From an uncultured Eubacterium sp. (GTDB lineage Bacteria; Bacillota; Clostridia; Lachnospirales; Lachnospiraceae), in NCBI GenBank assembly GCA_945910225.1, contig CAMDYG010000024.1, positions 1 to 37,485 on the forward strand: 37,485 nt of DNA, read 5' to 3'. Positions 12,472 to 26,164 of this stretch are shown here, piece after piece. How positions within the stretch are numbered: position 1 is the first letter of the stretch; every line of letters starts with the position of its first letter. The notes beneath the pieces were generated by a model, which was given only the letters and a program-made list of their open reading frames with translations, was not told the DNA's origin and ran no database searches. The translations under genes were made by a program, and so were the position numbers.

Positions 12472-13794
12472 ATGGATTTGTTTGATTTCATGAGAGAGAA
12501 TAATAAGAATGCAGAATCGCCACTGGCAATGAGGCTAAGACCAGAAACTCTTGATGAGATGGTAGGACAGTCACATATAATAGGTAAGGACAAGCTGTTA
12601 TACAGAGCTATTAAGGCAGATAAATTAAGCTCGGTTATATTCTACGGACCACCTGGTACCGGTAAAACAACGCTTGCAAAGATTATTGCCAATACAACGA
12701 GTGCACAGTTTTGCCAGGTCAATGCAACGATTGCCGGAAAGAAAGAGATGGAAGATGTTGTTGCAAAGGCAAAGGATAATCTGGGCATGTATGGAAAGAA
12801 GACTATTCTTTTTGTTGATGAGATTCATCGCTTTAATAAAGGACAGCAGGATTATCTTCTTCCATATGTAGAGGATGGTACTATTATATTGATTGGAGCT
12901 ACAACTGAGAATCCATATTTTGAAGTGAATAAGGCTTTAATATCAAGATCAATAATATTTGAACTCAGACCATTAGAGAAAGATGATATTAAGAAAATAA
13001 TTAATAAAGCCGTATACGACGAGAAAAAGGGAATGGGAAGTTATAATGCGGCTATTGATGATGATGCGCTTGAGTTTCTTGCAGACATATCAAATGGAGA
13101 TGCAAGAAGCGCACTTAATGCCATTGAACTTGGAATACTTACTACGGACAGATCAGAAGATGGAATAATCCATATAAATCTTGCAACGGCACAAGAGTGC
13201 ATCCAGAAACGGACAGTAAGATATGACAAAAATGGTGATAACCATTATGATACGATATCCGCATTTATAAAAAGCATGCGTGGTTCCGATCCGGACGCCG
13301 TTAGTTATTATCTTGCCAAAATGCTGTATGCAGGGGAAGATATTAAGTTTATTGCAAGAAGAATTATGATATGTGCAAGTGAGGATGTGGGGAATGCAGA
13401 TCCCAATGCATTACAGGTGGCAGTAGCAGCAGCACAGGCTGTTGAACGTATCGGAATGCCGGAGGCAAGGATAATACTTAGCCAGGCTGCGCTTTATGTT
13501 GCCACAGCACCTAAGAGTAATTCATGTTATATGGCAATAGATAAAGCACTTGATATTGTGCGAAATTCCAAAACAGCACCTGTGCCAGCACATCTTCAGG
13601 ATGCTCATTATAAGGACAGTGCCAAGCTTGGACATGGTGTTGGATATAAGTATGCGCATGACTATCCTAATCATTTCGTTAAACAACAATATCTTCCAGA
13701 TGAGTATATTGGAATGAAATTTTATGAACCTGGTGATATGGGGCATGAAAAGGATATTAAGAAACATTTAGCAAAAATTAATTCGGAGGCATAG
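12472..13794 (+). CDS. rarA: Replication-associated recombination protein RarA (MgsA), AAA+ ATPase
   Basis: AAA+ clamp-loader-like ATPase that acts at stalled replication forks and interacts with SSB. The 440-aa product has Walker A GPPGTGKTT at residues 59-67, Walker B FVDEIHR around 114-120, sensor 1 GATTENP, and the C-terminal tetramerisation/MgsA region with GHGVGYKYAHDYP. The N-terminal PLAMRLRPETLDEMVGQ is typical of the family. The next gene starts six bases after the stop, and its GGAGG site (13785-13789) lies inside the rarA 3' end, so translation is probably coupled. Confidence 0.95.
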   Translation: MDLFDFMRENNKNAESPLAMRLRPETLDEMVGQSHIIGKDKLLYRAIKADKLSSVIFYGPPGTGKTTLAKIIANTTSAQFCQVNATIAGKKEMEDVVAKAKDNLGMYGKKTILFVDEIHRFNKGQQDYLLPYVEDGTIILIGATTENPYFEVNKALISRSIIFELRPLEKDDIKKIINKAVYDEKKGMGSYNAAIDDDALEFLADISNGDARSALNAIELGILTTDRSEDGIIHINLATAQECIQKRTVRYDKNGDNHYDTISAFIKSMRGSDPDAVSYYLAKMLYAGEDIKFIARRIMICASEDVGNADPNALQVAVAAAQAVERIGMPEARIILSQAALYVATAPKSNSCYMAIDKALDIVRNSKTAPVPAHLQDAHYKDSAKLGHGVGYKYAHDYPNHFVKQQYLPDEYIGMKFYEPGDMGHEKDIKKHLAKINSEA

Positions 13795-13800
13795 TTTCCA

Positions 13801-16800
13801 ATGAGGGATTATATTAATAGATTGTCCAGAGGAAAGTCAATAATTGACGTACCAAGAATAATATATGATGAAGACAAAGTTGCCATGAATGTCTATAGTG
13901 ACAGGATAACTGAGGGCAGCTTTGATTTTGCTGCCACGGATGATATTAAAGGGATGATTTATTCAGATAATCCAAGAGTTTCAGTTATAACAAAAGCATT
14001 TAATGGAACTCAGGTTCATGCTAAATATATGGTAAATACTTCTGAACTGGAGGAAAATGATGAAATCGAAGGAAAGTTTACTATAGTAAGTAATGCCGGA
14101 GAGAAAGAGATTGTTTTTTCATTTCTGTGTGTTAAGGAGAATAATGATAATGGTATTGCTGTTATTAAGGAGAGCATTGTCATAAGCACAGATACGCAGA
14201 GCATAAATGCTGATATTGCTGACAGTAACCAGATGTATACATTTATGCTTGAAAAAACAGGTGATGGAAGTGTTGATGTTTTTATAAAATCAGATGCAGA
14301 GTTTATTCAGCCGGTAAAAAACCAGATATCAACGGATGATTTTACAGGAGACAGACTGGAACTGGAATTTCTTGCTGTTGCAGATAAACTGCATGCTGGA
14401 AAGAATTATGGATATATATATATTGATACATACAGACAGCATTTAAAGATTGCAGTAGAGGCATACGGAAGTAAAGAAGGACCTGATGAGGAGAATGGAG
14501 TAAGAAGAGAAGACAAGAATGCACTTATGTTACTTACGAAAGAATATCTTGACTTCAGAATGCATCGGATCAAGAAAGAAAAGTGGTTTTCAGAATGTAC
14601 TAAGATAGTTGACAGAATCAGGGGCATAAAGGGGGCAGATGTATTTTATGATCTTGTATGGGTCCAGCTGTTGTGCATGTCTGGAAGAGATGAAGAGGCT
14701 GAGGATTTATATGAAAAGCTGAAAAAAGATATTCTTGGCAGAATAGATGATGATGTGGAGTTATATTGTTATTTTCTGTATGTATCAACTCTTGTTGTTA
14801 AGTCAGAGGAATATACTACAGAAGTAGAGAAACAGGTAAGAAAGTTCTTTGAAAATGGATACGATACATACAGAATTTTATGGGTACTCTTTTATCTTAA
14901 TTCTGATACGGAGAGCAACAGAAGTATACGTCTGATCAGAATCAAGGATATTGTTAATGAGGGCTGTAATAGTCCGGTTATGTATCTGGAGGCTATGAAT
15001 ATCATTAATTCACAGCCATCATTACTCAGGGTGCTTAATAATTTTGAGATTAAGGTTATAGCTTTTGGATGCAGATATCAGATTATAAGTGAAAAGCTTG
15101 CCATGCAGATTGCGGATGTTGCAGCAAGAGAGAAGACACTTGATTTAAGAATGCTTGCTATTCTGGAAAGACTGTACGAACAGTATGACAAGGATGAGAT
15201 TCTTACAGCACTTGTTACACATATGGTAAGACTTGGACTCACGGGAAAAGAGTGTTTTCCTGCATATGAGAAGGGTGTGCTTAGAGGATTAAGAATAACA
15301 CGCCTGTATGAGTTTTATATATCAAGTATGGAAAAGAATCTGGACAGACAGCTTCCAAAGATTGTTTTATTGTATTTTGCATATGACAATACACTGGGAG
15401 ATTATGATAAAGCATTTTTATATGCCAATATTGTTAATAATAAGCAGGCATATAAGGATGTGTATGAGAATTATAAGAAGAATATAGGAATATTTGTGTA
15501 CGAGCAGTTAAAGCAGGGAAAGATTAATGATTATCTTATTGTTTTATATAAGGAGTTCCTTGGAGCAGAATACATAAGGGAAGATACAGGGCTTTTTGTT
15601 GGAAGATTAAAATATGTACACAGACTTGTTGTGTTTGATAATATTGTTACATCTGTAATTGTTGATAATGTTCAGATGAAAGAACCATGCAGGTATGAGC
15701 TTGTGGATAATAAGGCGTATATTTATACATATACAGGGGAATGTAATATAACATTTGAATGTATTGATGGTAATATACGGGATAATATTGACTATGAAAT
15801 TGAAACAGTATTTGCACCCGGGGATTATGATGAAGTGTGGAATGAAGCTGGCAGATACTGCGCACAGGATGCAGGATACCTTGTTAATAACTCATATGTA
15901 ATGCATAGAAAAGGAATTAACGATGACAATACACTTACAATGTATAAGTCCGTTAAAAGGTGTGACGCTGTCAACAGGGAATACAAGAAAAAAGTTAATT
16001 CATGGATGATAGAGTACTACAGTAAATATTACACTTATGATGATTTCTGGCATGAATATCCACATATAGATACAGATGAATTATCTGATACGGATGCAAG
16101 GATGCTGACGGAAGTGCTGATAGATGCCGGAATGTATTCTCAGGCATATGAGATAACACAGAAGTATGGCTGTAAGAATACTGCACCTGCAAAGCTTCTT
16201 AAAATGGTAGATTATATTCTGCAGAATGTAACGGATGCCCATAATGATATTATTGATGATATAACAACAGATATATTCAGGGAACATATATACAATGAGC
16301 ATGTACTTTCATATATGGTCCAGTATTTTAATGGAACTAATGATGAAATGTATACTGTATGGAAAGCAGCTGTTAATTATGGAGTAAATGTAACAGCCAT
16401 GTCAGAACGTATAATTGCGCAGATGATGTATACAGGCGTTCATACAGGACGTCTGACAGAAGTGTTCGCGGATTATTACAGCAAGATTCCTGATATGCTT
16501 ATTGTTAAGGCTTATCTGTCATATAATTCTCAGCTGTATCTTATAAGGCAGAAGAAAGCTAATGATATTGTTTTCAGGGTTATTGAGGAATGTATGCAGG
16601 ATGGTTATGGACTTCCAGAATGCTGTTATGTGGCATGGCTTAAGGATATATCCAGAAACCCTGCTGCACTTGCTGACAATGATAAGAAAAAAGAAATTGT
16701 CCAGAATGTATTTGATGAGTTATGCGCGGCAGACAAGATATATGGTTTCTATAAAAGATTCGAGGGAATTCTTAATATGCCATATAATGTCATAGGTGTT

Positions 16801-17175
16801 ACTGTTATAGAGTATATAGCTGATCCAATGAGCAAAGTGGATATAACATACTCACTGAATGACAGCAGGGATAAAATAACCCAGACAATGAAATCTAATG
16901 AGTGGGGCATATATACATGCAGATTTACTCTTTTTTATGGGGATCATATTAATTATTGTATTTCTATTAATGGCATTAAAGAAAAATGTGTTACAGAAGA
17001 TATGTATTATGAGTATAAGGATGTAAGTCCCGATATGGCAGATGGAAGATTTGCAGCAATTAATGACTGTCTTGACAGCCGCAGCCAGCATGATCTTGCA
17101 ACACTTAAGAAGCTGATGCGCAGTTACAGCGTTGAAGAATATGTTACTAAGCAGATGTTTAGACCAATGAAATAA
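13801..17175 (+). CDS. Very large DUF5717-like protein, unknown function
   Basis: A 1124-aa protein that resembles the DUF5717 family of Lachnospiraceae; that name is from memory. Residues 1-230 look like two beta-sandwich repeats, with strands such as YMVNTSEL and GKFTIVSNAGEKEIVFSF followed by LHAGKNYGYIYIDT. Residues about 240-990 are almost entirely helical with TPR-like pairs (for example FYDLVWVQLLCMSGRDEEAEDLYEKL), indicating an alpha-solenoid. The last 130 residues return to beta strands (VIEYIADPMSKVDITYSL) before a helical tail. There is no signal peptide or membrane helix, so it is probably cytoplasmic. No catalytic motif is visible. It starts six bases after rarA and ends 11 bases before the Hsp70-like gene; the architecture suggests a scaffold. 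Confidence 0.75.
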   Translation: MRDYINRLSRGKSIIDVPRIIYDEDKVAMNVYSDRITEGSFDFAATDDIKGMIYSDNPRVSVITKAFNGTQVHAKYMVNTSELEENDEIEGKFTIVSNAGEKEIVFSFLCVKENNDNGIAVIKESIVISTDTQSINADIADSNQMYTFMLEKTGDGSVDVFIKSDAEFIQPVKNQISTDDFTGDRLELEFLAVADKLHAGKNYGYIYIDTYRQHLKIAVEAYGSKEGPDEENGVRREDKNALMLLTKEYLDFRMHRIKKEKWFSECTKIVDRIRGIKGADVFYDLVWVQLLCMSGRDEEAEDLYEKLKKDILGRIDDDVELYCYFLYVSTLVVKSEEYTTEVEKQVRKFFENGYDTYRILWVLFYLNSDTESNRSIRLIRIKDIVNEGCNSPVMYLEAMNIINSQPSLLRVLNNFEIKVIAFGCRYQIISEKLAMQIADVAAREKTLDLRMLAILERLYEQYDKDEILTALVTHMVRLGLTGKECFPAYEKGVLRGLRITRLYEFYISSMEKNLDRQLPKIVLLYFAYDNTLGDYDKAFLYANIVNNKQAYKDVYENYKKNIGIFVYEQLKQGKINDYLIVLYKEFLGAEYIREDTGLFVGRLKYVHRLVVFDNIVTSVIVDNVQMKEPCRYELVDNKAYIYTYTGECNITFECIDGNIRDNIDYEIETVFAPGDYDEVWNEAGRYCAQDAGYLVNNSYVMHRKGINDDNTLTMYKSVKRCDAVNREYKKKVNSWMIEYYSKYYTYDDFWHEYPHIDTDELSDTDARMLTEVLIDAGMYSQAYEITQKYGCKNTAPAKLLKMVDYILQNVTDAHNDIIDDITTDIFREHIYNEHVLSYMVQYFNGTNDEMYTVWKAAVNYGVNVTAMSERIIAQMMYTGVHTGRLTEVFADYYSKIPDMLIVKAYLSYNSQLYLIRQKKANDIVFRVIEECMQDGYGLPECCYVAWLKDISRNPAALADNDKKKEIVQNVFDELCAADKIYGFYKRFEGILNMPYNVIGVTVIEYIADPMSKVDITYSLNDSRDKITQTMKSNEWGIYTCRFTLFYGDHINYCISINGIKEKCVTEDMYYEYKDVSPDMADGRFAAINDCLDSRSQHDLATLKKLMRSYSVEEYVTKQMFRPMK

Positions 17176-17186
17176 GGAGTTAAGGT

Positions 17187-18353
17187 ATGGAACAGGGGAA
17201 AGGTCTTATTGTTGGAATTGACATGGAAAATACTATCACTCAGGCAGCAGTGTATGATGCAAAGAGTTCATCTGTGCAATCGGTTAATCTGGCGCAGGAT
17301 TCGAGAGAATATGTGAACCAGGTACCACTTAAGGATATTATATCAGGTGATGATGGTACAGATGCAGACAGTCTTACAAGAATACTTAATAATGTAATAG
17401 CAGAGTGCATGAGAGTAACTAATACAACAGAAGTTCTTAGTGTATGTATTTCTTTCCCGTATTTTTACATGGATGCACTCAATGCTTTAAGGGAAGCTAT
17501 CAGAAGAACAGGAATCAAAGATGGCAGATGGCAGATAATAAGCAAGACGGATAGCTTTGCATATTATTCTTACAGTCAGAAAAGAGAACTTTCTTCTTCA
17601 GGAGTTGCATTAATTGAGTATGATGAAGATGGTATCCATTGTGTAAGACTTGGAGTAAGAAAGATAGATAATGTAAGTTATCTTTTGCAGGAAAATGTGG
17701 AATATACATCAGAAAATATAAAAAATGTTGTTTTACAAAGAACCGGATTAGAGAGTGTCGAAGAAGAATTGTGCAGGTTTGTTGAGGAATACTTTTTAAA
17801 GCGTCCTGTTTCAGCAGCTTATCTTACAGGAACCGGATTTGATGCGGCTGAACTTCCACCTAAGTTTGCCAAGCTGATGGTTACAAGAAGAAAAGCATTT
17901 GTAGGACAGAATCTTTTCTCCAAAGGAGCGTGCTATGCAGCAATGGAACTACTTAAACCGGAATTGTTCAGGAATGTGGAACTGCTGCTGGATAACAGAG
18001 TAAAATATGGAATTGAAATGGATATTTCACAATATGGACAGGCAAAGAGATTCAGGATTGTCAGAGAAGGAACTAACTGGTATATGATTGACAGAACAAT
18101 GGAATTCGTGCTTGATGATATCAGGACAATAACTTTAAGAATAACAACTCCTGATAAAAGGTATTATGATGAAGACATTGATATAAGTGAAATACCTTTC
18201 AGAGAAGGGAAGACAACAAGGATATCAATGAATATAAGATTTGCCGGAGTTGACAGATGTCTTATATGCATTAAGGATAAAGGATTCGGGGATTTCTTTA
18301 AAAGTTCTGGAAAAGTTATATATAAAGAATTAGAGTTTAAGAATGAAGATTAA
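17187..18353 (+). CDS. Divergent Hsp70/actin-fold protein (DUF5716-like), unknown function
   Basis: The 388-aa product carries weak but ordered traces of the actin/Hsp70 ATPase fold: a phosphate-1-like start LIVGIDMENTITQAAVYD (residues 7-24), a phosphate-2-like strand ALIEYDEDGIHCVRL near 141-155, an adenosine-like YLTGTGFDAAELP near 212-224, and FSKGACYAAMELL near 243-255, comparable to the last Hsp70 helix. Residues about 265-385 are beta-rich and could be a substrate-domain analogue. The usual glycines of phosphate-1 (DxGTT) and phosphate-2 (DxGGGT) are missing, so hydrolysis may be lost. I recall the DUF5716 name for this neighbour of DUF5717. AAGGAG precedes ATG 17187, 11 bases after the previous stop. 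Confidence 0.7.
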   Translation: MEQGKGLIVGIDMENTITQAAVYDAKSSSVQSVNLAQDSREYVNQVPLKDIISGDDGTDADSLTRILNNVIAECMRVTNTTEVLSVCISFPYFYMDALNALREAIRRTGIKDGRWQIISKTDSFAYYSYSQKRELSSSGVALIEYDEDGIHCVRLGVRKIDNVSYLLQENVEYTSENIKNVVLQRTGLESVEEELCRFVEEYFLKRPVSAAYLTGTGFDAAELPPKFAKLMVTRRKAFVGQNLFSKGACYAAMELLKPELFRNVELLLDNRVKYGIEMDISQYGQAKRFRIVREGTNWYMIDRTMEFVLDDIRTITLRITTPDKRYYDEDIDISEIPFREGKTTRISMNIRFAGVDRCLICIKDKGFGDFFKSSGKVIYKELEFKNED

Positions 18354-18385
18354 ATCTGTTATTTGTATACAGAAGGAGATTACAA

Positions 18386-19210
18386 GTGGGAAGAATTATA
18401 TTGTGCAGGGGAAAAGAGACGGACAGACCACTCATTGTAGAGGGAACAGGTATCCGGCTATATACTGCTGAAGAGCTCTGTTATTACATATATAATAATA
18501 TATATCTCATAGGACATGAATTTATTAATGGACGGCTTGTTGAATTCTTAAGGCAGACAGGAGAAGAAGAACTGGCTGACAGAGTACGGAATCTGATGGA
18601 AAAAAAGGCGGGACTTGCCCAGATAATTGTCACAATACTTAAAACAGTAGATTATTACTCTGTGGAAGAGATTGAACAGATAAGAGAGATCCTTGGAACA
18701 CTTGGCAAGCAGAATATATGTGAAAGACTAAAGTCAAGGGGTGACAGCTTCCTTAATAATGAATGTTATTTCAGTGCAGTTAAATGTTATGAATCAGTTA
18801 TAAAAGAGTATCAGTGTAAAGGACTGCTGGCAGTTGATGTTACAAGGTTATATCATAATCTTGGAACTGCATATGCAAGGATGTTCATGTACAGTCAGGC
18901 AGCTGATTATTATGATGAAGCGTATAAATATGGCCAGCATGAAGAATCTAAGAAATGTGCTATTGCTGCAAGAATTCTGGCTAAAAGAGATAAGGCACCG
19001 GTAAATGTTGATGTTACAGAGGATGAGTATGTGGCAGGATGTGAACTGGAAACACTCATGGACAATGCAAGATATAGTGATGAATACAGAGAACTTGAAA
19101 GGCTTGAAGCATTGAAAGAAAATGACAATCTTGGAAATTATAACAGGGCAGTTAATGCTAAACTGTATGAATGGAAGAATAATTACATTAAATACAGCAA
19201 GATATTTTAG
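18386..19210 (+). CDS. TPR-repeat protein, unknown function
   Basis: The 274-aa product is read from a GTG start at 18386, supported by AAGGAG at 18373-18378 seven bases upstream. Residues 1-105 form an uncharacterised mixed domain, opening with strands (GRIILCRGKE) and continuing with helices. Two TPR-like units follow: about 115-140 (GDSFLNNECYFSAVKCYESVI) and about 153-182 (LYHNLGTAYARMFMYSQAAD, then YYDEAYKYG), with the small and aromatic residues expected for TPR helices A and B. The remainder is charged helix. No signal peptide or membrane segment is present. It sits between the Hsp70-like gene and the coiled-coil membrane protein, so a protein-protein adaptor role in this set is likely but unproven. 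Confidence 0.7.
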   Translation: MGRIILCRGKETDRPLIVEGTGIRLYTAEELCYYIYNNIYLIGHEFINGRLVEFLRQTGEEELADRVRNLMEKKAGLAQIIVTILKTVDYYSVEEIEQIREILGTLGKQNICERLKSRGDSFLNNECYFSAVKCYESVIKEYQCKGLLAVDVTRLYHNLGTAYARMFMYSQAADYYDEAYKYGQHEESKKCAIAARILAKRDKAPVNVDVTEDEYVAGCELETLMDNARYSDEYRELERLEALKENDNLGNYNRAVNAKLYEWKNNYIKYSKIF

Positions 19211-19228
19211 AAGGCAGATGGTGAATGT

Positions 19229-20758
19229 ATGGGATTGCTTAAATTTTTAAAAAAGACATATGTACAGGATTATGACCTCGAGAATCTGGAAGATCTTGTT
19301 TATGATGATGAACATATAAGTGAAGATGATGATTTACAGGATATAACAACTGATAAAGACAGCAGAATGGATATATCTGAGCTGTTTGAAGGGTTTGATA
19401 TTGATGGCAAAGATAATAAAAAGCCAGAGAAAGAAAAGGCTTATGTGCCAGATAAAAAGACACAGGGAAGACAGAAACAGTCCATGCTTGATGAAGAAAA
19501 GTATGATCATCTTCTTAAAAGTGTCCAGGCACAGAATCTTATAAAGACAGTTGAGAATCTTGGAGGAGACAGTAAGGATAAACAGGAGAAGGAAGAAAAA
19601 GAGAAAGAACCGGTTATTCTTCCGGATGTAACGAGAAAACCCAAAAAACTGGAAAAGGTTGATACTGAGAAATTCAAGACAAGTGATATAGAATTATATG
19701 TAAAAAGCCAGTGTGATATCATGGAAGAGGCTGCGGCTCATGCAGAAGCTGCAAAAGATGAATATGAATCTGTGACTGAGGAATTTAATGATATAACACT
19801 TATAGAGGAAGCTCCTGATGATATAAGAAAAAATATAGAGGAAATGGCTTCCAGAATTGATTCAATGTCTGTAGACAGAAGAATAATTAAGGTATCAGAA
19901 CAAAAGTTGTCAAATGCTTCTTATAGAAGAATGGAAGCTGTAGAGGATGAGATGCCAGGAGGTTTAAAGCTTTTAAGAGCCCAGGAAGAATATTATGATT
20001 CTGTAAAACGTGACATGAGAATGGTGGAAGGCGAGAGACTGGGATTAAGGCTTGAAGCTAAAGACCTTGTAAAAAAACAGATAAGGATAAGAAGCCTGGC
20101 CAAGCTGGCGCTGTTTGCATTTGCATTGGTATTTGTTGTTTTTCTTATATCAATAGGTGTATCAGAAGATGATTCTGATATAGGATTTTTTATTATGGTT
20201 TCTTTACTTGCTGCAATTCTGGTTGTTGGTATGGTTGCAGTATTAAAGATAACTGAAAGAAAAGTGCTTATAACAGAGATAAAGCTTAATAAAGCAACAG
20301 CTTTGCTCAATAAGGTAAAGATTAAATATATCAATGCTGCTAATACGCTTGACTATGAATATACCAAATTCGGAGTAAAGAGTGCATATGAACTTAGCAA
20401 TAAGTATCAGGTGTATCTTGATATGAAGGACGAACAAAAAAGGATGCTTGATATGACTTCAGCACTTAATCAGGCAGAATTAAACCTTGAACAGAATCTT
20501 AAAAAGCTAGGATTGTATAATGTCCATGTGTGGCTTGGAAGAGTCAGGGCTTTGTACAACCCGAAAGAAATGGTCGAGATAAGACATGAACTGGTTGTAA
20601 GAAGGCAAAAGCTCAGAAATCAGATTGAATATAATGAGAATCAGATTAATGAAGCAAAACAGAACATTAAGAATGTTACTTTATCTAATCCGGAATACAG
20701 TCAGGATGCAATCAGGGTAATTGAAATGTATGAGAGAAGACACAGGGTTGCAAAATAA
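19229..20758 (+). CDS. Coiled-coil protein with a two-helix membrane hairpin, unknown function
   Basis: No family is recognised. The 509-aa product opens with an acidic, disordered region of about 150 residues rich in Asp, Glu and Lys. A helical coiled-coil stretch follows at about 155-285, then two membrane helices near 292-312 (LALFAFALVFVVFLISIGV) and 318-340 (IGFFIMVSLLAAILVVGMVA), joined by only five or six residues (SEDDSD). A second coiled-coil stretch fills 345-509. With so short an outer loop, both ends should be cytoplasmic, so the protein looks like a membrane anchor presenting coiled coils inside the cell. It starts 18 bases after the TPR gene with a weak site (AAGGCAG). It closes the uncharacterised cluster; no terminator is visible before the pheS promoter. 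Confidence 0.7.
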   Translation: MGLLKFLKKTYVQDYDLENLEDLVYDDEHISEDDDLQDITTDKDSRMDISELFEGFDIDGKDNKKPEKEKAYVPDKKTQGRQKQSMLDEEKYDHLLKSVQAQNLIKTVENLGGDSKDKQEKEEKEKEPVILPDVTRKPKKLEKVDTEKFKTSDIELYVKSQCDIMEEAAAHAEAAKDEYESVTEEFNDITLIEEAPDDIRKNIEEMASRIDSMSVDRRIIKVSEQKLSNASYRRMEAVEDEMPGGLKLLRAQEEYYDSVKRDMRMVEGERLGLRLEAKDLVKKQIRIRSLAKLALFAFALVFVVFLISIGVSEDDSDIGFFIMVSLLAAILVVGMVAVLKITERKVLITEIKLNKATALLNKVKIKYINAANTLDYEYTKFGVKSAYELSNKYQVYLDMKDEQKRMLDMTSALNQAELNLEQNLKKLGLYNVHVWLGRVRALYNPKEMVEIRHELVVRRQKLRNQIEYNENQINEAKQNIKNVTLSNPEYSQDAIRVIEMYERRHRVAK

Positions 20759-20775: not shown

Positions 20776-20836
20776 AAACAGTGGCTTTTTACGCAAATGA
20801 TTGATAAAAAGCGAAAGAAGTATGGAGGCTATAAGG

Positions 20837-21856
20837 ATGAAAGAAAGACTTGAAGCAATTAGAGAGAGAGCTTTAGCACAGATTAATGAAACTGATTCGC
20901 TTGATAAGCTGAATGATATCAGAGTTGCTTTTCTTGGAAAGAAGGGTGAACTTACTGAAGTACTTAAAGGTATGAAGGATGTTGCACCAGAAGACAGACC
21001 TAAGGTTGGTCAGATTGTTAATGAGACAAGACAGGCAATTGAAGAAGTATTAGATAAGGCTAAGACAGAATTAGCTGCCAAGAAGAGAGAACTTCAGTTA
21101 AAGAGTGAAGTAATAGATGTTACTCTTCCATCTAAGAGAGATGAGTTAGGACATAAGCATCCTAATACACTTGCTTTAGAAGAAATCCAGAAGATATTCA
21201 TTGGAATGGGTTATGAAGTAGTTGACGGACCAGAAGTTGAGTATGATTACTATAACTTTGAGGCACTTAATATACCAGCTAACCACCCGGCTAAGGATGA
21301 ACAGGATACATTTTACATCAATGATAAGATAGTACTCCGTACACAGACTTCCCCTGTTCAGGCAAGAGTTATGGAGAAGGGAAAGCTTCCTATCAGAATG
21401 ATTTCTCCTGGACGTGTATACAGAGCAGATGAAGTTGATGCTACACATTCACCTTGCTTCCATCAGGTAGAGGGTCTTGTAATTGACAAAGGAATTACAT
21501 TTGCAGATCTTAAGGGAACTTTGGCAGAATTCGCCAAGGAGCTTTTCGGACCTGATACTAAAGTTAAATTCAGACCACATCATTTTCCATTCACTGAGCC
21601 TAGTGCTGAGATGGATGTAAGCTGTTTCAAATGTGGTGGTAAAGGATGCCGTTTCTGTAAGGGCGAGGGCTGGATTGAAATTCTCGGCTGTGGAATGGTT
21701 CACCCACATGTATTTGAGCTTTGCGGAATTGATAAGGAAGAATATACAGGATTTGCCTTTGGTGTAGGACTTGAGAGAGTTGCTCTTCTTAAGTACGAAA
21801 TCGATGACATGAGACTCCTTTATGAGAATGATATCAGATTCATAAAGCAGTTCTAA
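20837..21856 (+). CDS. pheS: Phenylalanyl-tRNA synthetase alpha subunit
   Basis: Catalytic subunit of the alpha2beta2 enzyme that charges tRNA-Phe. ATG 20837 gives 339 aa, the usual PheS length, and GGAGG at 20824-20828 is eight bases upstream; in-frame starts at 20822 and TTG 20801 are less likely because the first overlaps that site. Landmarks are the N-terminal coiled coil, the HPNTLALEEIQ segment, motif 2 with SPGRVYRADEVDATHSPCFHQ, the FKCGGKGCRFCKGEGWIEILG stretch and motif 3 GFAFGVGLERVALLKY. A Cys-rich pair (CFKCGGKGCRFC) is retained. pheT follows after 46 bases. Confidence 0.96.
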   Translation: MKERLEAIRERALAQINETDSLDKLNDIRVAFLGKKGELTEVLKGMKDVAPEDRPKVGQIVNETRQAIEEVLDKAKTELAAKKRELQLKSEVIDVTLPSKRDELGHKHPNTLALEEIQKIFIGMGYEVVDGPEVEYDYYNFEALNIPANHPAKDEQDTFYINDKIVLRTQTSPVQARVMEKGKLPIRMISPGRVYRADEVDATHSPCFHQVEGLVIDKGITFADLKGTLAEFAKELFGPDTKVKFRPHHFPFTEPSAEMDVSCFKCGGKGCRFCKGEGWIEILGCGMVHPHVFELCGIDKEEYTGFAFGVGLERVALLKYEIDDMRLLYENDIRFIKQF

Positions 21857-25806: not shown

Positions 25807-26164
25807 TATATGAGTAGCACAGATGATCGCGGCTGCATATGTGCAGGTGAGGAAAGTCCGGGCTTCATAGGGCAGGATGCCGGATAACATCCGGTGGAGG
25901 CGACTCCAAGGACAGTGCAACAGAAATAAACCGCCAGCAGATTTTGCTGGTAAGGGTGGAAAGGCAGTGTAAGAGACTACCGCATTACTGGTAACAGTAT
26001 TGGCACATGTAAACCCCATCCGAAGCAAGACCAAACAAAAGCGTTATTAAGGCTGCCCGTCAAGCTTTAGGTAGGTTGCTTGAGCCTGCTGGCAACAGCA
26101 GGACTAGATAGATGATCATCACAGCGTCAGCTGACATAACCCGGCTTATAGTGCTGCTCATATA
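25807..26164 (+). ncRNA. rnpB: RNase P RNA (class A-like M1 RNA)
   Basis: Catalytic RNA that removes the 5' leader of pre-tRNAs. The P4 hallmark GAGGAAAGTCCGGGCT is near 25850, and ACAGAAA with the following ACCGCC is seen near 25919-25934. The conserved 3' part includes the GTAAACCCCATCCGAAGCAAGACCAAA-type region around 26008-26038 and AGATAGATGATCATC near 26106-26120, then ATAACCCGGCTTATAG. The ends close helix P1: TATATGAGTAGCAC (25807-25820) pairs with GTGCTGCTCATATA (26151-26164) with one mismatch. Length of about 358 bases is normal. The exact ends are inferred from this pairing. Confidence 0.95.

What the first reader, a model, noticed from the sequence alone, without database searches (positions are those of the whole stretch)
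13801..20758. Four-gene uncharacterised cluster that looks like a membrane-tethered Hsp70-like assembly
Four consecutive genes with gaps of 11, 32 and 18 bases encode a 1124-aa beta-sandwich plus alpha-solenoid protein, a divergent Hsp70/actin-fold protein, a TPR protein and a coiled-coil protein with a membrane hairpin. Tight packing shows they are expressed together. An ATPase-like fold with helical-repeat partners and a membrane anchor is the composition of a scaffold or remodelling complex. None has a known function to my knowledge beyond DUF names. This is the best candidate for an undescribed system in the window. The link between the parts is inference from order and domain type.
Basis: partly seen in the sequence, partly recalled or inferred. 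Interest (0 to 1): 0.78.

Follow-up and report, generated by a model that had tools for sequence, protein, structure and literature searches.

The report
Remnant of a multi-Hsp70 machine
A gene cluster carried by a family of gut bacteria appears to be the leftover scaffold of a larger chaperone machine: it keeps an Hsp70-like protein that has lost its ATP-burning residues, while related families still carry working-looking Hsp70 partners beside it.

Summary
The four genes are real, at the stated coordinates and gaps, and form a conserved unit. In Lachnospiraceae (window genus Lachnospira, judged by its closest named relatives) DUF5716 was found in 69 of 69 genomes. The order DUF5717-DUF5716-TPR held in nearly every locus examined; the coiled-coil gene is often lost. 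The Hsp70 reading is right, the ATPase reading is not: DUF5716 proteins are Hsp70 homologues without lid helices and without the catalytic Lys and Thr (0 of 86 rows each). Other families of the order carry an expanded locus: beta-sandwich, solenoid, Hsp70, GrpE-like, DUF5716, Hsp70, Hsp70-vWA, TPR; 23 of 32 such loci hold the five Hsp70/GrpE genes, all in one order. DUF5716 branches with one of those Hsp70s, and the Lachnospiraceae form nests inside expanded-locus forms. The window cluster is best read as the ATPase-dead remnant of a lidless multi-Hsp70 machine, probably a membrane-tethered client-holding scaffold; that function is inference. I found no description in the open-access papers searched. 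DUF5717 is modelled as four beta-sandwiches with two alpha-solenoids.

The parts
13801..17175 (+). DUF5717 protein, 1124 aa; equals the fusion of two separate genes (beta-sandwich 'SAND' and solenoid 'SOL') of other families
   Evidence: L041 SAND and SOL match DUF5717_N/DUF5717 piecewise; SAND profile matches window residues 18-221, SOL profile 237-1088
13858..14478 (+). two N-terminal beta-sandwich domains (residues ~20-226)
   Evidence: AlphaFold2 model
14485..15609 (+). alpha-solenoid I (residues 229-603)
15613..15816 (+). third beta-sandwich (residues ~605-672)
15829..16761 (+). alpha-solenoid II (residues 677-987)
16798..17157 (+). fourth beta-sandwich (~1000-1075) and C-terminal helices (1083-1119)
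17187..18353 (+). DUF5716 protein, 388 aa: lidless Hsp70 homologue without catalytic residues; remnant of the nucleotide-binding domain, then a substrate-binding-beta-like domain from about residue 278 (18018-18350)
18386..19210 (+). TPR protein, 274 aa: conserved N-terminal domain plus TPRs (residues ~119-181)
   Evidence: homologous to the longer TPR protein of the expanded locus, hhalign P 99.9, E 3.2e-31
19229..20758 (+). coiled-coil-type protein, 509 aa, with two adjacent hydrophobic segments
   Evidence: family alignment A10
20105..20245 (+). predicted membrane hairpin of the coiled-coil protein (residues 293-311, 321-339)
   Evidence: Kyte-Doolittle scan
12472..13794 (+). rarA/mgsA AAA ATPase, 6 bases upstream; flank, not part of the unit
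   Evidence: beside the cassette in 17 of 19 fetched same-genus loci (the other 2 are cut short) and in few other Lachnospiraceae
20801..21856 (+). pheS, 42 bases downstream; flank, not part of the unit

Best explanation
The cluster is one functional unit and the reduced descendant of a lidless multi-Hsp70 machine. SHOWN by sequence: DUF5716 descends from an Hsp70, has lost the lid, the catalytic residues and, in Lachnospiraceae, most of nucleotide-domain lobe IIB; it still has a substrate-binding-beta-like domain; sister families carry in one gene row three Hsp70s with intact motifs, a GrpE-like protein, DUF5716, a TPR protein and the two halves of DUF5717; the Lachnospiraceae loci lack the three Hsp70s and the GrpE-like gene and have the two halves fused. 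INFERRED: that the lack is a loss; that DUF5717 (beta-sandwiches and solenoids), DUF5716 and the TPR protein form a complex that binds clients or partner proteins without its own ATP cycle, as a static scaffold or holdase; that the coiled-coil protein, where present, fixes it to the cytoplasmic face of the membrane. What the clients are is unknown.
For: Homology: L041 DUF5716 matches both DUF5716_C (2.2e-33) and HSP70 (1.8e-14), and the neighbouring Hsp70 'H3' matches HSP70 (1.6e-63) and DUF5716_C (1.3e-12). Profile of 31 non-Lachnospiraceae DUF5716 against PDB: DnaK 9.4e-26; of 128 hits the 60 shown are Hsp70-family names (DnaK, BiP, Hsc70, mortalin, Ssb1) except one 'putative uncharacterized'. 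That profile against the Lachnospiraceae one: P 100, E 5.5e-49, 424 columns. Lachnospiraceae profile against PDB: 7 of 7 hits are Hsp70s, but weak, E 0.06-0.63. Dead site: DnaK Lys70 and Thr199 equivalents kept in 36 of 36 rows of the three sister Hsp70s (12 rows each of 24, 29, 24), in 0 of 31 and 0 of 55 DUF5716 rows (24 of the 55 have a gap at the Lys). No lid in any of the locus Hsp70s; DnaK positions ~183-264 missing in 13 of 13 Lachnospiraceae rows (occupancy 0-26%), kept at 83% or more in 31 of 31 others. Expanded locus: 23 of 32 loci hold H1, GrpE-like, DUF5716, H3, HvWA, all in that order. Tree of 130 sequences: DUF5716 with H3 (support 0.985); Lachnospiraceae grouped first with f4 (0.972), then f22 (0.99), both with expanded loci. 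GrpE genes: 1 in 4 of 4 Lachnospiraceae, 2 in 4 of 4 expanded-locus genomes, 1 in reduced G051 and 1 in G258, which has no DUF5716 match. Unit; DUF5716-TPR fusion ORF in L202; SAND-SOL fusion also in G265 and G347.
Against: No interaction, localisation, expression or phenotype data. Lobe-IIB loss is not tied strictly to loss of the GrpE-like gene: L050 (family f16) has only SAND-SOL-DUF5716 at its locus but keeps the lobe (84%). 9 of 32 outside loci are incomplete or split (some end at contigs, two come from one genome), and unrelated genes interrupt several. Many genomes of the order lack a DUF5716 match (129 of 246). The coiled-coil protein is dispensable, and its older link may be to valS. 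Support for H3 as a clade is nil (0.062), and the other 29 outside DUF5716 group with only 0.157. The window genome holds other Hsp70s: dnaK, a second DnaK-type gene and one in two pieces; all score higher with a DnaK profile than with H1, H3 or HvWA profiles. DUF5716 itself was not modelled (job failed) and the DUF5717 fold was not compared with PDB (tool off).
Confidence: 0.62

Rival explanations
1. Adaptor for the housekeeping chaperones: the cluster recruits cellular DnaK/DnaJ/GrpE, through the TPR or DUF5716, to a membrane site, so the ATP cycle is supplied in trans.
For: Canonical dnaK (cut at the window start), dnaJ and grpE remain (window 147 and 1629); TPR proteins are classical Hsp70 partners (general knowledge).
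Against: No test of binding was possible; no sequence link between DnaK and the locus was found.
Confidence: 0.22
2. Actin-like cytoskeletal or septal scaffold rather than a chaperone derivative.
For: Actin/Hsp70 superfamily fold, membrane coiled-coil partner; MreB_Mbl matches to the sister Hsp70s at 2.6e-8 to 1.3e-17.
Against: The same proteins match HSP70 at 1.6e-63 to 8.1e-92; DUF5716 keeps a substrate-binding-beta-like domain aligned to DnaK residues ~430-500, a part that MreB/FtsA lack (recalled); the nucleotide site is gone.
Confidence: 0.08
3. A chaperone-coupled conflict/defence system, like the GAP1-N2 GTPase systems with HSP70 and GrpE.
For: Kaur et al. 2020 (PMC7159879, passages read) describe GAP1-N2 neighbourhoods with HSP70, GrpE, a second HSP70 without its peptide-binding domain and TPR or DnaJ fusions, mainly in actinobacteria and firmicutes.
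Against: No GAP1-N2 in 7 of 7 genomes incl. four with the expanded locus; the only PADLOC match is PDC-M61B in 2 of 10 proteins, H3 and HvWA; single copy in 69 of 69 Lachnospiraceae genomes, not patchy; DUF5717 has no match on plasmids.
Confidence: 0.05
4. Adjacent but functionally unrelated genes.
For: Flanking housekeeping genes (rarA, pheS, valS) are also adjacent in several lineages.
Against: Flanks change while the core order is kept; natural fusions (L202; SAND-SOL); same partners in the expanded locus of other families.
Confidence: 0.03

Closest known systems
Hsp70/DnaK chaperones (PF00012; DnaK, HscA)
   Same: DUF5716 aligns over the nucleotide domain and substrate-binding beta domain; three sister proteins of the expanded locus are clear Hsp70s
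   Different: no lid in any of them; DUF5716 lacks catalytic residues and in Lachnospiraceae much of lobe IIB; no DnaJ gene noticed at the loci read (by eye and the scan of L041)
GrpE nucleotide exchange factor (PF01025)
   Same: C-terminal ~150 residues of the expanded-locus helical protein match GrpE: 7.1e-11, PDB 4ani 3.1e-4
   Different: 279-645 aa, mostly with a long extra helical part; absent from the 56 and 80 Lachnospiraceae-type loci
GAP1-N2 GTPase-centric HSP70/GrpE/TPR neighbourhoods (Kaur et al. 2020, PMC7159879)
   Same: combination of HSP70, GrpE, a second HSP70 lacking its peptide-binding domain, and TPR fusions; vWA in a related theme
   Different: no GAP1-N2 GTPase here; that paper does not contain the terms DUF5716 or DUF5717; here a core, vertically kept locus
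Hsp110-type Hsp70 relatives
   Same: an Hsp70 paralogue working beside active Hsp70s would be analogous (recalled)
   Different: Hsp110s keep nucleotide binding and a long lid (recalled); neither is seen here
Pfam DUF5716_C (PF18980), DUF5717 (PF18983, PF18984)
   Same: the window proteins are members
   Different: described only as families of unknown function

Membership tests
Hsp70 chaperone (as a working ATPase chaperone) | homology over nucleotide-binding domain and substrate-binding beta domain | tested here: met
   (via the non-Lachnospiraceae DUF5716); weak alone
Hsp70 chaperone (as a working ATPase chaperone) | catalytic/phosphate residues (DnaK Lys70, Glu171, Thr199; numbering recalled) | tested here: not met
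   Lys and Thr 0 of 31 and 0 of 55; Glu 6 of 31 and 0 of 55
Hsp70 chaperone (as a working ATPase chaperone) | helical lid (SBD-alpha) | tested here: not met
   DnaK positions from about 480 on mostly missing in DUF5716 and likewise in H1, H3, HvWA
Hsp70 chaperone (as a working ATPase chaperone) | nucleotide-domain lobe IIB | tested here: not met
   positions ~183-264 missing in 13 of 13 Lachnospiraceae rows; kept in 31 of 31 rows of other families
Hsp70 chaperone (as a working ATPase chaperone) | client binding, J-protein stimulation | not testable with these tools
   needs bench work
DUF5716_C / DUF5717 Pfam families | score above curated cut-off | tested here: met
   258.9 vs 34.7; 714.4 and 244.3 vs 25 bits
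GAP1-N2 conflict system | GAP1-N2 GTPase gene | tested here: not met
   0 of 7 genomes
GAP1-N2 conflict system | defence-family proteins | tested here: not met
   window proteins 0 of 4; of 6 expanded-locus proteins, H3 and HvWA match PDC-M61B (3.9e-11, 2e-7) over about 190 residues of the Hsp70 part
MreB/FtsA-type actin homologue | closest relatives are actin-like cytoskeletal proteins, no SBD-beta | tested here: not met

The most novel reading that the evidence does not exclude
The order to which Lachnospiraceae belong has its own chaperone machine built only from lidless Hsp70s: two plain ATPases, one with a vWA domain in place of the lid, and one dead Hsp70, with a private GrpE-like factor and a beta-sandwich/solenoid client arm. 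Lachnospiraceae discarded all its ATPases yet kept the dead Hsp70 (69 of 69 genomes), its client arm and the TPR protein, so a pseudo-chaperone has outlived its enzymes and become a universally kept, often membrane-tethered scaffold.
Probability: 0.45. Interest if true: 0.82.

Novelty: new variant of a known kind. Interest (0 to 1): 0.66.

Why it matters
Lachnospiraceae are among the commonest bacteria of the human gut (recalled). A single-copy cassette of about 7 kb whose DUF5716 gene is in all 69 genomes checked, with no function on record in the libraries searched, is a gap in their core biology. The finding gives two DUF families an origin, identifies a dead Hsp70 in bacteria that can be compared with live sisters from the same locus, and makes a clear question testable: what does an Hsp70 do once it has lost lid, ATPase and exchange factor.

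Tried and rejected
Single-protein scan of genome contigs with DUF5716: nothing. Alignments A1 and A2 too divergent for the scan; a narrower DUF5717 alignment A3 worked (509 of 536 candidates confirmed, best 80 kept). Extra genes in and around 11 expanded loci were read by eye for a shared partner or a J protein; they look like unrelated inserts (not searched against Pfam). Promoter/terminator scan: no excess over shuffles (61 vs mean 56.7; 2 vs 5.2), so no transcript boundary can be claimed. Four 'Bacteriophage sp.' records match DUF5716; three were opened: all carry rarA near the cassette, two also the TPR and coiled-coil genes, one also valS, so they look like mislabelled chromosomal scaffolds; the fourth was not opened. 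The window genome's other Hsp70s were checked as possible surviving H1/H3/HvWA; they are DnaK-type. Defence and actin-filament readings were rejected as in the rivals. Paper searches that found no description: (open-access PMC only, no preprints; listings seen, passages of two papers). The only paper holding DUF5716 is a stray motif label in a cancer study.

Rows dropped before counts: searches used the first 12 of 24 H1, 29 H3 and 24 HvWA; one search used 13 of 55 Lachnospiraceae DUF5716 rows and HvWA cut to its first 520 residues; length filters. One search printed only the five commonest letters per column; one search gave the full counts. One search also held G067, a genome outside the order put in by mistake (no match).
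Full report
WHAT IS THERE. The four ORFs and the 11-, 32- and 18-base gaps are as reported. The upstream neighbour is rarA (6 bases away) and the downstream neighbour pheS (42 bases). Pfam names the first two DUF5717 and DUF5716; the third has weak TPR matches; the fourth has no family. No NCBIfam or PADLOC model claims the window proteins. A model of the DUF5717 protein (44 sequences, mean pLDDT 85.4, pTM 0.55) shows two beta-sandwiches, an alpha-solenoid, a third beta-sandwich, a second solenoid, a fourth beta-sandwich and two C-terminal helices. The pTM is moderate, so the arrangement of the domains is less sure than the domains.

WHERE IT OCCURS. With PF18980, 37 of 37 genomes of the window's family f1 and 33 of 33 in a second draw (its list of misses is cut, but is sorted by kinship and starts outside f1) carry the gene, one copy each; the draws share only the window's genome, so 69 distinct genomes. 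Outside f1, 84 of 213 genomes of the order match, some only through the related Hsp70 'H3'. In a draw of 398 genomes over the phylum 5 match, all f1 and one of them the window's own. The closest named relatives are Lachnospira (L. multipara, 'Lactobacillus rogosae', uncultured Lachnospira and Eubacterium), so I take the window to be a Lachnospira.

THE UNIT. The sets overlap by at least 13 contigs. The coiled-coil gene follows in 40 of 54 and 67 of 70. Of 13 f1 genomes without it beside the TPR gene, 12 have no match anywhere and one a short weak match. Flanking genes change from lineage to lineage: rarA and pheS in Lachnospira, valS in some others, other genes in the rest.

THE EXPANDED LOCUS. 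In other families of the order the locus is larger: a beta-sandwich protein matching the first part of DUF5717_N, a solenoid protein matching the rest, an Hsp70 (H1), a helical protein ending in a GrpE domain, the DUF5716 protein (about 520 aa), a second Hsp70 (H3), a third Hsp70 with a C-terminal vWA domain (HvWA), and a TPR protein. Of 32 such loci (31 genomes; L048 and L051 are one genome), 23 contain H1, GrpE-like, DUF5716, H3 and HvWA, all in this order (in L040 the HvWA frame is in two pieces; in several, unrelated genes intervene). The other 9 are cut by contig ends, split or reduced; L050 has only SAND-SOL-DUF5716, and the Hsp70 search of its genome shows DnaK plus low-scoring hits, none in the range of H1, H3 or HvWA. 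The coiled-coil gene lies between TPR and valS in the f4, f7 and f22 loci read, and next upstream of valS but away from the locus in G265 and G271; one f11 and one f19 genome have it elsewhere. None of the 56 or 80 f1-type loci holds H1, H3, HvWA or the GrpE-like gene; the one such label, in the window, is canonical dnaK. Whole-genome searches agree for GrpE: four f1 genomes have one each, four expanded-locus genomes two; reduced G051 and G258 (no DUF5716 match listed) have one. The window genome has further Hsp70s: a second intact one and one in two pieces. Both score higher with a DnaK profile (1055; 162 and 100 bits) than with H1, H3 or HvWA profiles (at most 418; 133 and 59), so they are not the missing partners.

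DUF5716 IS A DEAD HSP70. The link is by sequence, through the longer DUF5716 proteins: one protein matches both families, their profile finds DnaK structures at 9.4e-26, and the f1 profile aligns to it nearly end to end at 5.5e-49. Directly, the f1 profile only reaches Hsp70 structures at E 0.06-0.63, though it reaches nothing else. At the positions of DnaK Lys70 and Thr199 the three sister Hsp70s keep the residue in 36 of 36 rows; DUF5716 keeps it in none of 31 and none of 55 (24 of the 55 have a gap at the Lys). Glu171 is E in 6 of 31 and 0 of 55. None of the four kinds has the helical lid. The f1 form has in addition lost DnaK positions about 183-264, roughly lobe IIB (boundary recalled), part of where GrpE docks (recalled): occupancy 0-26% in 13 of 13 f1 rows against 83% or more in 31 of 31 others. 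That fits absence of the GrpE-like gene, but L050 keeps the lobe (84%) without one, so the two losses are not strictly tied.

DIRECTION OF CHANGE. In a FastTree phylogeny of 130 sequences and 494 columns rooted on DnaK, DUF5716 joins H3 (0.985), and f1 joins f4 (0.972), then f22 (0.99), both with expanded loci. H3 as a clade (0.062) and the remaining DUF5716 as a clade (0.157) are unsupported. The simplest reading is that the expanded locus came first and f1 lost the three ATPases and the GrpE-like gene. SAND and SOL are one ORF in f1, in G265 (1326 aa) and, shortened, in G347 (1006 aa), but two genes in f4, so fusion happened or reverted more than once. The branches are long and the sample of families is uneven; a broader tree is needed.

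MECHANISM. What remains in Lachnospiraceae is a client-type domain set (beta-sandwiches, two solenoids, a substrate-binding-beta-like domain, TPRs) without an engine. I therefore favour a static scaffold or holdase, membrane-tethered where the coiled-coil gene is present; an adaptor that borrows housekeeping DnaK is the main rival. Neither is tested. The DUF5716-TPR fusion in L202 (one metagenome contig) supports direct contact of those two.

AGAINST KNOWN SYSTEMS. The nearest described neighbourhoods I found are the GAP1-N2 GTPase systems with HSP70, GrpE, a truncated HSP70 and TPR or DnaJ fusions (PMC7159879; passages read). The defining GTPase is absent here (0 of 7 genomes). I found no paper on DUF5716/DUF5717 as an Hsp70-derived system (searches; open-access only). 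I file it as a new variant of Hsp70-based systems and not as a working Hsp70, since catalytic residues and lid were tested and not met.

Noticed in passing
window 25811-26164 +: RNase P RNA, class A (306.8 bits).
   Followed up: no
window 13801-14500: The window's DUF5717 lacks about 60 residues (profile positions ~125-187), a helical insert between the two N-terminal beta-sandwiches. Close relatives L109, L111, L114, L120 have the same short length (1123-1126 aa), while most others are near 1185; their gap was not mapped.
   Followed up: partly
L040 3099-9000: In family f4, closest to Lachnospiraceae in the DUF5716 tree, the Hsp70-vWA and TPR frames are each in two pieces: sequencing error or decay in progress.
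   Followed up: no
L106 5261-8113: Coiled-coil gene runs in frame into what reads like a glutamyl-tRNA synthetase (950-aa ORF; named by eye). With pheS in Lachnospira and valS elsewhere, this gene often lies next to aminoacyl-tRNA synthetase genes; no reason known.
   Followed up: no
L102 (genome G391, family f8): A Lachnospiraceae-type cassette in a genome of another family with 5% contamination: transfer or mis-binning.
   Followed up: no
L075 19145-19852; L081 15912-16820: Upstream of the beta-sandwich gene in an f19 and an f11 locus lie coiled-coil or membrane-like genes (by eye) that could be alternative anchors.
   Followed up: no
L224 3-1947 (window genome contig C4): An Hsp70 gene of DnaK type in two pieces beside a short J-domain-like ORF (by eye).
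   Followed up: no
phage records MT835486, MT835988, MT837190: Unverified 'Bacteriophage sp.' fecal scaffolds carry rarA and cassette genes (one also valS): probably chromosomal DNA filed as phage.
   Followed up: partly
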